The translations under genes and the position numbers were made by a program. Of a stretch of 64,000 nt of DNA, positions 21,709 through 23,687 are shown one piece after another. The stretch covers positions 19,182,001-19,246,000 of the forward strand of contig NC_079489.1 of assembly GCF_020520425.1 (NCBI RefSeq), written 5' to 3'. This DNA is from Spinacia oleracea (Eukaryota > Streptophyta > Magnoliopsida > Caryophyllales > Amaranthaceae). Every line of letters starts with the position of its first letter. Positions within the stretch are counted from its first letter, which is position 1. The notes under the pieces were generated by a model. It made no database searches. It was not told the origin of the DNA and saw only the letters and a program-made list of their open reading frames with translations.

Positions 21709-21791
21709 ACACATCGGCTTCAAAATGGAAATAAATAATAATATCACATCATTTTCAGATGGAAATTATTCCCATTTTGAAACCGATGCGT
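21709..21791. other. MLE hairpin 1
   Basis: ACACATCGGCTTCAAAATGG pairs with the complementary stretch ending GAAACCGATGCGT; 23 of 26 positions pair. The loop contains ATCACATCATTTTCAGATGG, which is also in the loop of the hairpin at 22064. Confidence 0.6.
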
Positions 21792-21904
21792 CAAAAGATG
21801 TAATTTTGACAAAAACAATCAATTCATCATTGATAACACATGGAATATGCCTCACATAAACAAAGATTCATAAATATCTCAGAATGTCCCCAAAAATCAT
21901 TGAA

Positions 21905-21991
21905 TCAAACCCTTTCCAATTAAACTTAGCTCCTGAAAAACATCATGGATGCTAATGGTGCATGAGTTTGATTGAAAAACAAAGGGTTTGA
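21905..21991. other. MLE hairpin 2 (conserved-loop type)
   Basis: TCAAACCCTTT pairs fully with AAAGGGTTTGA. After a bulge, CCAATTAAACT pairs with AGTTTGATTGA with two mismatches. The loop starts TTAGCTCC and contains GATGCTAATGGT, as in the hairpins at 22527, 23085 and 23598. Confidence 0.55.
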
Positions 21992-22063
21992 CACTCATAA
22001 AATGAAGACTCATCACAGATCACAAGGCATAAGTACAAAAACTTCTTCACATCACATCTCTAA

Positions 22064-22143
22064 GCACATCGGCATCCAAATGGAAAGAATGCATATCACA
22101 TCATTTTCAGATGGAAATTCTTCCCCATTGGATGCCGATGTGC
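22064..22143. other. MLE hairpin 3
   Basis: GCACATCGGCATCCAA pairs perfectly with TTGGATGCCGATGTGC; after three mismatches the stem continues with AAGAAT. In total 24 of 27 positions pair. Relative to hairpin 1, both arms changed together at the ATC/GAT positions. Confidence 0.65.
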
Positions 22144-22250
22144 CAAAAGATGTAATGGTAAGGAAACAAGAACAAAGCAGCAAAAACAAGGAAGCAATGA
22201 ACAAGGCAACATCATTGACTCTCAGTTTAGTTGTTTTACATCATTGACAG

Positions 22251-22377
22251 ATTTGTTTCTAAATGATTTACAACCTCACCACCAATTCACCAAAGGGGAT
22301 ACTAGATCAATCAATGATGTGACATGATCTGTATTCCCTTTGGTGATTGGTGGTGAGGGACATGTTTAGAATCAAAT
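22251..22377. other. MLE hairpin 4, longest stem
   Basis: CCTCACCACCAAT, CACCAAAGGG and AGATCA each have exact complements in order on the other arm, with one- to three-base bulges. The outer part (ATTTG...TCTAAA) also pairs. The stem is about 50 bp and the loop about 16 bases, resembling a long plant MIRNA-like or young inverted-duplication foldback. Confidence 0.7.
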
Positions 22378-22526
22378 ATCTCAGGTTATCAACACATACA
22401 TCACAGATCAGAAACACTAACATCATTGAATATCAGAAACACATTATACATGTTTTGCAATACATGAATTGCCTCTCCTGTCTAACCTGACATAAGATCT
22501 CAGAATGTCCCCAAGCATCATTGACA

Positions 22527-22609
22527 CAAACCCTATCCCCTAACACTTAGCTCCGGAAGAGCATCAATGATGCTAATGGTACACAAGTGTTATTGGAACA
22601 TTGGGTTTG
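22527..22609. other. MLE hairpin 5 (conserved-loop type)
   Basis: CAAACCC and TAACACTT pair with AAGTGTTA and GGGTTTG, with an internal loop of a few bases between. It is preceded by GATCTCAGAATGTCCCCAAG and followed by CTCAGCAAATGAAAGACTC, flanks shared with the related hairpins. Confidence 0.6.
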
Positions 22610-22848
22610 AGTCTCAGCAAATGAAAGACTCATCACAGATCAAGCATAACAATAACAATCAACAATGCATCAGATCACCATGAACTGATCAAAGCATAGG
22701 GTTTGAACCTCATCAAATGAAAGACTCATCACAGACCTCCACTGATTCATGGGACATGAAGCATTAAACAGATCATTAACATGTAGGGTTTCATTTCTCA
22801 GACATATTGACACACATCATTGATCAAGTAGTTTCAATACTATCATAT

Positions 22849-22938
22849 CTTTAACATTCTTCTGCCGAATGGAATGATTGATATTCACATTCCATTGTGT
22901 GAAATGACATTCACTCCGTTCGACAAAAGAAGTTAAAG
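22849..22938. other. MLE hairpin 6
   Basis: CTTTAAC, TTCTT and the CCGAATGGAATG region pair with CATTCACTCCGTTCG, AAGAA and GTTAAAG, with one bulge and a few single mismatches. The T in CCGAATGG would form a U-G pair. Confidence 0.6.
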
Positions 22939-23084
22939 GACAATTATCAAAACAAAGATCTCAGAATATCAACACTAACATCATTGAATATCAGAAACAC
23001 ATTATACATGTTTTGCAAGACATGAATTGCCTCTCCTGTCTAACCTGACATAAGATCTCAGAATGTCCCCAAGCATCATTGACA

Positions 23085-23167
23085 CAAACCCTATCCCCTA
23101 ACACTTAGCTCCGGAAGAGCATCAATGATGCTAATGGTGCACAAGTGTTATTGGAACATTGGGTTTG
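23085..23167. other. MLE hairpin 7 (copy of hairpin 5)
   Basis: Second copy from the 558-bp duplication, with the same stem as 22527-22609. One loop base differs (GGTGCACAAG for GGTACACAAG). Confidence 0.6.
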
Positions 23168-23406
23168 AGTCTCAGCAAATGAAAGACTCATCACAGATCA
23201 AGCATAACAATAACAATCAACAATGCATCAGATCACCATGAACTGATCAAAACATAGGGTTTGAACCTCATCAAATGAAAGACTCATCACAGACCTCCAC
23301 TGATTAATGGGACATGAAGCATTAAACAGATCATTAACATGTAGGGTTTCATTTCTCAGACATATTGACACACATCATTGATCAAGTAGTTTCAATACTA
23401 TCATAT

Positions 23407-23496
23407 CTTTAACATTCTTCTGCCGAACGGAATGATTGATATTCACATTCCATTGTGTGAAATGACATTCACTCCGTTCGACAAAAGAAGTTAAAG
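23407..23496. other. MLE hairpin 8 (copy of hairpin 6)
   Basis: Second copy of 22849-22938. CCGAACGG here pairs exactly with CCGTTCGA on the other arm, where the first copy has T and only a U-G pair. Confidence 0.6.
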
Positions 23497-23597
23497 GACA
23501 ATTATCAAAACAAAGATCTCAGAATATCAACAATCACATCATTGAAGATCACAAACCTCCTAATATTGATCTCAGAATGTCCCCAAGCATCATTAAA

Positions 23598-23687
23598 ACA
23601 ACTCCAAACCACAAACACTTAGCGCCCGAGAAATATCATTACTGATACTAATGGCAGCACGAGCATTTGTGGTTAGTTGGACTTGTT
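23598..23687. other. MLE hairpin 9 (conserved-loop type, different arms)
   Basis: ACAACTCCAA and ACCACAAA pair with TTTGTGGT and TTGGACTTGT, with a three-base bulge and one mismatch. The loop (CACTTAGCGCCCGAG...ACTAATGGC) and both flanks are recognisably those of hairpins 5 and 7, but the arm sequences differ and still pair. Confidence 0.65.

What the first reader, a model, noticed from the sequence alone, without database searches (positions are those of the whole stretch)
21709..23687. Array of nine imperfect hairpins between the two genes of a mariner-like element
Seen: nine foldbacks of 80-130 bases in 2 kb, downstream of the transposase. Four (21905, 22527, 23085, 23598) share flanks (GATCTCAGAATGTCCCC before; ACTCATCACAGATC-like after) and a loop (CTTAGCTCC...GATGCTAATGG) while their arms differ. 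In 23598 versus 22527 many arm positions changed on both sides with pairing kept. Known: plant transposons can give rise to MIRNA-like or siRNA hairpins. Inference: this may be a multi-hairpin small-RNA precursor, or a set of protein-binding foldbacks, carried by an autonomous transposon; I know of no such array described for plant mariners. Inherited inverted duplications are the dull alternative.
Basis: partly seen in the sequence, partly recalled or inferred. Interest (0 to 1): 0.88.

Follow-up and report, generated by a model that had tools for sequence, protein, structure and literature searches.

The report
Jumping gene carrying anti-host RNA hairpins
A plant jumping gene in the spinach genome carries a string of nine RNA-hairpin sequences, and some of them spell the antisense of a host genome-maintenance gene, which suggests that the parasite may use small RNAs to turn that host gene down.

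Summary
Between the convergent genes of a 6.85-kb mariner-like element lie nine foldbacks of 119-151 nt, eight of them stronger on the minus strand, that of the second gene. They fall in four types (A-D); two are tandem duplicates. The genome matches spinach. Of 15 related loci read, 11 carry such arrays, with hairpins gained and lost as modules. Arms change on both sides with pairing kept.

A genome pattern search led to exon 1 of the host gene GMI1 (SMC-hinge GHKL ATPase). The window's D arms pair with it over 21 nt with no mismatch and 2-3 G:U. Type C resembles a second GMI1 exon (32 of 43 bases) but pairs with it poorly today.

Best reading: an autonomous transposon carrying a modular array of microRNA-like precursors, at least one aimed at GMI1; like rice miR820, but with many hairpins. 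No small-RNA data were available. The targets of A, B and E are unknown, and codon tracking is shown for D/F only.

The parts
19134..25981 (.). whole mariner-like element, 6848 bp, terminal inverted repeats CTCCCTCCATTCC..., flanked by TA (19132-19133 and 25982-25983)
   Evidence: read from the sequence; near-identical copies in the genome
19681..21324 (+). transposase, 547 aa, acidic triad D282, D406, D446 (39 residues between the last two)
24212..25450 (-). second gene, two exons (about 25450-25160 and about 24376-24212); 155-aa proteins P0121 and P0123 in spinach; MGSSxS start; conserved core CDxGxxC...EHSYSxEY. In this copy the frame differs from P0121 after ...DLRFF
   Evidence: exon limits approximate, from the annotated protein
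23567..23717 (-). hairpin B4, -50.4 kcal/mol
23379..23518 (-). hairpin D2, -58.9 kcal/mol (tandem duplicate of D1)
23408..23428 (-). D2 3'-arm 21-mer, antisense to GMI1 exon 1 (0 mismatches, 3 G:U)
23053..23199 (-). hairpin B3, -50.9 kcal/mol (tandem duplicate of B2)
22821..22960 (-). hairpin D1, -53.1 kcal/mol
22850..22870 (-). D1 3'-arm 21-mer, antisense to GMI1 exon 1 (0 mismatches, 2 G:U)
22495..22641 (-). hairpin B2, -49.3 kcal/mol
22244..22383 (-). hairpin C, -65.2 kcal/mol (plus strand -67.1)
22253..22295 (-). C 3' arm, 32 of 43 bases like a GMI1 exon (fragment on C1, L071), intron end included
22044..22162 (-). hairpin A2, -66.1 kcal/mol
21875..22020 (-). hairpin B1, -42.1 kcal/mol
21684..21816 (-). 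hairpin A1, -56.9 kcal/mol
   Evidence: weak Rfam matches MIR6288 and MIR5649 below gathering
22386..23518. 558-bp tandem duplication carrying B2+D1 and B3+D2; by the alignments it appears to be missing in 14 of 20 sister loci

Best explanation
The nine foldbacks are a modular array of microRNA-like precursors made from the minus strand, downstream of the element's second gene. The scaffolds (loops of A and B, base of B) stay constant while the double-stranded arms change. In types D and F the 3' arm yields a roughly 21-nt RNA antisense to the codons of the conserved N-terminal motif F[N]ILLPNG of the host gene GMI1. Type C came from a second GMI1 exon. The RNA would lower GMI1, an SMC-hinge GHKL ATPase linked in Arabidopsis to double-strand-break repair and related in domains to silencing proteins; this could help a cut-and-paste parasite at excision or against chromatin control. 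Shown: the hairpins, compensation, spread through relatives, codon-periodic variation of D/F, and near-perfect complementarity of D to GMI1. Inferred: transcription, dicing to 21 nt, repression of GMI1, and benefit to the transposon.
For: Five of nine minus-strand hairpins stronger than any of 60 shuffles. Arms covary: type A 94.6% of cells paired, 13 two-sided cells against 5.7 in shuffles (1 of 500); type B 21 against 7.4 (0 of 500); two-sided changes still paired in 76 of 94 (A), 111 of 153 (E), 587 of 817 (B). Arrays in 11 of 15 related loci read, one of them in a family with a 47% identical transposase. D/F arms, all 10 variants found in the fetched DNA: 19 of 37 codon pairs synonymous, 0 of 3000 column shuffles (15 of 20 and 0 of 5000 for six chosen variants). 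Degenerate codon pattern: 241 genome matches against 0 for the reversed pattern; one of the two places that I fetched from it is GMI1 exon 1. Gene identity from 157 homologues, many of them named GMI1; LLPNG in 61 places among the 120 listed. D1 to GMI1a: 0 mismatches, 2 G:U, score 1.5 (antisense control 6.0; next best of 36 arm tests on the sense strand, leaving out D2's 2.0, is 4.0); to GMI1b 3.0 (antisense 7.5); a plus-strand product would score 4.0. Alignments of arms to GMI1 beat all 60 shuffles only for 3' arms of C, D and F, and the window's C and D arms score 19.5-21 there against at most 13.5 in 57 kb of other window DNA. Stems less diverse than spacers (0.0086 against 0.0134).
Against: No small-RNA, degradome or expression data. 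A, B, E and G arms show no convincing GMI1 match. C pairs poorly with GMI1a, b and c today (scores 5 to 8.5), and F spellings score 4.5 to 8.5. An unrelated E arm scores 3.5 by chance upstream of GMI1b, close to D1's 3.0 there. With every variant counted, codon periodicity is not significant for C (967 of 3000) or E (420 of 3000) and not seen for B. For B, the number of further pair types is no higher than in shuffles (274 of 500). The G:U against A.C bias (41 to 11) is marginal once the T/G-rich strand is allowed for. A2 and D1 taken alone are more diverse than the spacers (0.0272, 0.0164). GMI1 is not an established RNA-directed DNA methylation factor.
Confidence: 0.63

Rival explanations
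1. Captured gene scraps: pieces of GMI1 and of other genes were caught as inverted duplications at different times; synonymous differences only record the evolution of the source genes, and pairing persists because replication or conversion copies one arm onto the other (quasipalindrome correction). The array does nothing.
For: C still matches an intron end of GMI1, and F and C matches run over 40-43 bases, longer than a small RNA; hairpins come and go as blocks; copies are young.
Against: For D the similarity to GMI1 ends after 28 bases; loops of A and B and the base of B are more constant than the arms; G:U pairs, which arm-to-arm copying would remove, are common; stems as a class are less diverse than spacers.
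Confidence: 0.22
2. The hairpins are a host-side trigger or a decoy: their double-stranded RNA feeds 21-24-nt siRNAs that silence the transposon, or saturates the host's dicing enzymes, with no particular target.
For: Long strong hairpins; arms free to drift in B and E.
Against: D arms match one gene in sense orientation, with codon-limited variation.
Confidence: 0.1
3. DNA or RNA foldbacks bound by the transposase or by the second protein, for example for transposition or RNA export; the constant loops are the binding sites.
For: Loops of A and B are nearly invariant.
Against: Different loop sequences in each type; internal position; does not explain the GMI1 match.
Confidence: 0.05

Closest known systems
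miR820 in rice CACTA transposons, targeting OsDRM2 (PMC3459959; outline with abstract, and section 9, read)
   Same: microRNA precursor inside a DNA transposon; antisense to a host chromatin gene; stem still resembles the gene's own genomic DNA; microRNA and target co-vary between lineages
   Different: mariner, not CACTA; an array of nine hairpins in several types; target GMI1, not a methyltransferase; small RNA and regulation not shown here
Cuscuta trans-species small-RNA superfamilies (PMC6917502; abstract and passages read)
   Same: several variants of one small RNA that differ in a three-nucleotide period and cover synonymous spellings of a conserved protein motif (here D/F only)
   Different: here inside a transposon, against its own host genome, by sequence only
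Plant mariner-like elements (Vulmar, Osmar, Soymar; names recalled)
   Same: CTCCCTCC-type ends, TA duplication, DD39D transposase
   Different: 6.85 kb with a second gene and a hairpin array; neither feature turned up in the search listings
MIRNA birth by inverted duplication of the target gene (recalled)
   Same: arms resemble the target
   Different: the carrier is mobile and the units are multiplied and exchanged

Membership tests
plant Tc1/mariner element | terminal inverted repeats and TA target duplication | tested here: met
   read by eye
plant Tc1/mariner element | DD39D transposase | tested here: met
   D282, D406, D446 invariant among 11 proteins, spacing 39
plant MIRNA locus | single-stem hairpin with few mismatches in the presumed duplex | tested here: met
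   for A, C and D; B has larger internal loops
plant MIRNA locus | precise 20-22-nt small RNA and star strand | not testable with these tools
   no small-RNA reads held
known Rfam microRNA family | score above the gathering threshold | tested here: not met
   best MIR6288 37.7 bits against 74
transposon-borne anti-host microRNA (miR820 type) | precursor inside a transposon and multiplied with it | tested here: met
   hairpins in sister copies and relatives
transposon-borne anti-host microRNA (miR820 type) | near-perfect complementarity to a host gene | tested here: met
   D1 and D2 to GMI1a; not C or F
transposon-borne anti-host microRNA (miR820 type) | target belongs to the silencing machinery | tested here: inconclusive
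   GMI1 is a hinge-domain GHKL ATPase; the review passages name break repair
transposon-borne anti-host microRNA (miR820 type) | target mRNA is repressed | not testable with these tools
   no expression data
[quoted passage not shown]
   D/F only: 0 of 3000 shuffles; E 420 and C 967 of 3000 are not significant; B nothing; A not put to this test

The most novel reading that the evidence does not exclude
An autonomous mariner lineage in spinach carries a polycistronic, exchangeable microRNA cassette: constant processing scaffolds with swappable guide arms. Its guides follow the synonymous spellings of host genome-maintenance genes (GMI1 for D/F, others behind A, B and E), an RNA-guided counter-defence that evolves like an arms race inside one genome.
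Probability: 0.47. Interest if true: 0.95.

Novelty: new variant of a known kind. Interest (0 to 1): 0.88.

Why it matters
The clearest transposon-encoded microRNA against its host that I found is rice miR820. This would be a second, independent case in another transposon superfamily, with many hairpins per element and a target that is a repair and chromatin ATPase. It makes an old question directly testable: whether DNA transposons actively disarm host genome control with RNA. It also gives a natural series of guide and target variants in one genome (241 pattern matches).

Tried and rejected
Rfam: only weak plant MIR matches. PDB motif searches with short peptides: nothing. Viral-contig scan with the second protein: nothing. 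Pfam on the transposase, the second ORF and GMI1 exon 1: nothing above a cut-off. Target search for A, B, E and G in GMI1a and in the parts of GMI1b fetched: nothing convincing; one B-type 5' arm (L059) reaches 16.0 in a GMI1a linker exon and is left as a lead. Antisense E scores of 15.5-17.5 (one just above its shuffles, 17.5 against 17.0) were judged T-rich chance. L059F2's best alignment fell at a T-rich place, not at exon 1, and L052D only tied its shuffles. G:U bias alone and the count of foldbacks alone were rejected as proof. A codon claim for E (87 of 5000 on six variants that I had picked) was withdrawn after all variants were counted (420 of 3000). Confidence was lowered slightly for that. 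Protein-binding and cruciform readings were considered and ranked low.

In the search on GMI1 and microRNA, PMC4212123 uses 'GMI1' as part of a bacterial strain name, PMC7541909 only in a reference, and PMC6747262 as a repair gene; nothing in the listing links GMI1 to a microRNA. Hairpin arrays in plant mariners were not found in print, which cover open-licence papers only.

Full report
WHAT WAS CHECKED. The window is G000:C3:19182001-19246000 of an 894-Mb genome. The element is 19134-25981, with CTCCCTCC-type inverted ends and TA duplications (by eye). Transposase and second gene converge. The second protein is 155 aa when spliced (P0121, 99% identical over the 96-aa ORF; sibling P0123, 81%); in this copy the frame differs from P0121 after ...DLRFF.

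THE ARRAY. Local folding gives nine strong hairpins, eight of them better on the minus strand. Seven are independent; two belong to a 558-bp tandem duplication. There are four types in the window: A (2), B (4), C (1), D (2). The number of foldbacks is ordinary for this composition; five of the minus-strand energies beat all 60 shuffles. Arm alignment that treats G:U and A.C alike gives 381 Watson-Crick, 41 G:U, 11 A.C and 47 other columns on the minus strand. The T/G excess of the spacers predicts about 2:1, so this test is only marginal (p 0.04 at ratio 2).

RELATIVES. The first search scored 40 of 545 candidate places, all 100% identical over the 171-base query. The transposase search scored 79 of 692 candidates, all 94-100% identical, so the family is young. 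I read the stretch downstream of 15 further transposases (L051-L065). Arrays are present in 11 (L052, L053, L054, L056-L059, L061, L062, L064, L065). L063 keeps remnants and L051 half an F unit beside another insertion. None was seen in L055 and L060. Only 2.3-3.6 kb was read at each place. Four of the eleven (L052, L053, L064, L065) are close sisters of the window's element. L054 belongs to protein P0020, whose transposase is 47% identical to ours. New types appear: E (GCCAGTTTT / AACTGGC) in seven loci (L052, L056-L059, L061, L062), F in L052, L059 and L067, G in L059. L052 has E and F units that the window lacks; by eye the window keeps part of an E unit near 22440-22490. The array therefore changes by whole modules.

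COMPENSATION. Pairwise comparison, aligned by sequence without structure: two-sided changes remain standard pairs in 76 of 94 cells for A, 111 of 153 for E, 587 of 817 for B, 9 of 10 for C, 2 of 7 for F and 2 of 2 for D (units over 98.5% alike removed first, for B 19 of 26 kept; ordered pairs, hence not independent). The letter-shuffled expectation of two-sided cells is 30, 62 and 504 for A, E and B. Formal counts: A (6 sequences) 13 two-sided cells against 5.7, 1 of 500 shuffles; B (10 of the 26 units, chosen because they align without large gaps) 21 against 7.4, 0 of 500, although the number of further pair types in B is not raised (274 of 500). The tool warns that related sequences can exceed such shuffles. 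In A, column pair 39/95 shows A-U, C-G, U-A and U-G. Loops of A and B and the base of B are nearly invariant, unlike ordinary plant microRNA genes (general knowledge).

CODONS. Reading the reverse complement of the 3' arm, D and F spell NILLPNG or close to it. All variants found in the fetched element DNA within five substitutions of two seed spellings: 10 variants, of which 6 read NILLPNG, the others NVLLPNG, NVLLPIG, NILPPNG and NILLPKG; 19 of 37 codon pairs are synonymous and 0 of 3000 column shuffles reach that, the best of six frames being taken each time. For six chosen variants it was 15 of 20 and 0 of 5000. C-type arms read PHHQFTKGD, PHHRFTKGN and PQHPFTKGN, and E arms mostly SNASLYV, but with every variant counted neither is significant (967 and 420 of 3000); an earlier, smaller set for E (87 of 5000) had left out non-synonymous variants of L061 and L062. 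B shows no such pattern; A was not put to the shuffle test.

TARGET. The degenerate pattern for NILLPNG[M/V/I] finds 241 places in the genome and 0 for the pattern read backwards; only the first 100 were listed. I fetched two with unusual spelling. C3:64361837 is a hairpin (L067). C3:5580703 is exon 1 of a gene, MNEKKRKFQS...FYRFNILLPNGIKVPF. The exons downstream find 157 homologues among 7995 scored candidates, 120 listed, many named GMI1, gamma-irradiation and mitomycin c induced 1 or SMC flexible hinge domain protein; P0126 is a spinach model of the same gene. LLPNG occurs 61 times in the 120, so the target lies in a conserved motif. D1's 3' arm pairs with GMI1a over its best 21 nt with 0 mismatches and 2 G:U (score 1.5), D2 with 0 and 3 (2.0); antisense controls score 6.0, and the next best of the 36 arm tests on the sense strand is 4.0. 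In GMI1b (FNVLLPNG) D1 has 2 mismatches and 2 G:U (3.0) at the same motif, though an E arm reaches 3.5 by chance elsewhere in that stretch. If the plus strand were the precursor, D would score 4.0 instead of 1.5. Of 44 arm tests against 14.5 kb of GMI1 DNA (22 hairpins, both arms), 8 beat all 60 shuffles, all of them 3' arms of C, D or F; one of these (L059F2) hit elsewhere, and L052D only tied. Type C: 32, 34 and 30 identical of 43, 43 and 40 bases with the GMI1 exon PHHPFTKA on C1, intron end included, yet its complementarity is too poor today for confident targeting. Best scores of the window's C and D arms in 57 kb of other window DNA were 12.0-13.5, against 19.5-21 in GMI1. A review passage calls GMI1 involved in double-strand-break repair in Arabidopsis, and describes DMS3 as a hinge protein lacking GMI1's ATPase motif (PMC5651269).

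CONSTRAINT. Among 54 loci, which by their places are 46 copies because eight are read twice, diversity is 0.0086 in stems, 0.0134 in spacers, 0.0167 in unpaired hairpin sites, 0.0118 at transposase third positions, 0.0042 and 0.0039 at first and second (the 171-base query region left out; B4 not covered). A2 and D1 alone exceed the spacers (0.0272, 0.0164).

READING. The simplest account that covers constant scaffolds, compensated arms, module exchange, codon-limited D/F spelling, sense-only matches and minus-strand preference is a transposon-borne array of microRNA precursors, at least D aimed at GMI1. What it does not settle is expression, processing and the targets of A, B and E.

Noticed in passing
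25160-25450 (-) and P0121, P0123; L054 773-1063, L060 976-1461: The element's second protein begins MGSSxS, like an N-myristoylation signal (recalled motif), and keeps CDxGxxC...EHSYSxEY even in the P0020 family (transposase 47% identical); the ORF has no Pfam family above cut-off.
   Followed up: partly
26267-26294: CCCGGGGCATCGCCCGGG hairpin followed by CTAAAAACTAGT, like the 3' end of a plant Helitron (recalled), just right of the mariner element.
   Followed up: no
27776-28192 (-): ORF resembling a non-LTR reverse transcriptase fragment (GPDGVPA...LVPKV...FRPISL), by eye.
   Followed up: no
12000-14000, 36000-38000, 48000-52000, 60000-62000: Other very strong foldbacks (best -59 to -80 kcal/mol in 110-nt windows) outside the element.
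   Followed up: no
24466-24985: Internal direct repeats in the intron of the second gene, with several partial matches in L053.
   Followed up: no
L072 249-272 against L059 2083-2230: A type-B 5' arm (TTGCTGAGACTCAAACCCTTT) matches a GMI1a linker exon (KGFEFQK) with one mismatch and two G:U by eye; one search gives alignment score 16.0, not significant alone.
   Followed up: partly
L059 and L067 (C-like units): Further C-like arms read PHHRFTKGN and PQHPFTKGN, close to PHHPFTKA of GMI1b and GMI1c.
   Followed up: partly
G000 C1:61.54 Mb, C3:5.56, 5.60 and 5.78-5.80 Mb, C5:74.7 Mb: GMI1 exists as at least two genes and several fragments in spinach.
   Followed up: partly
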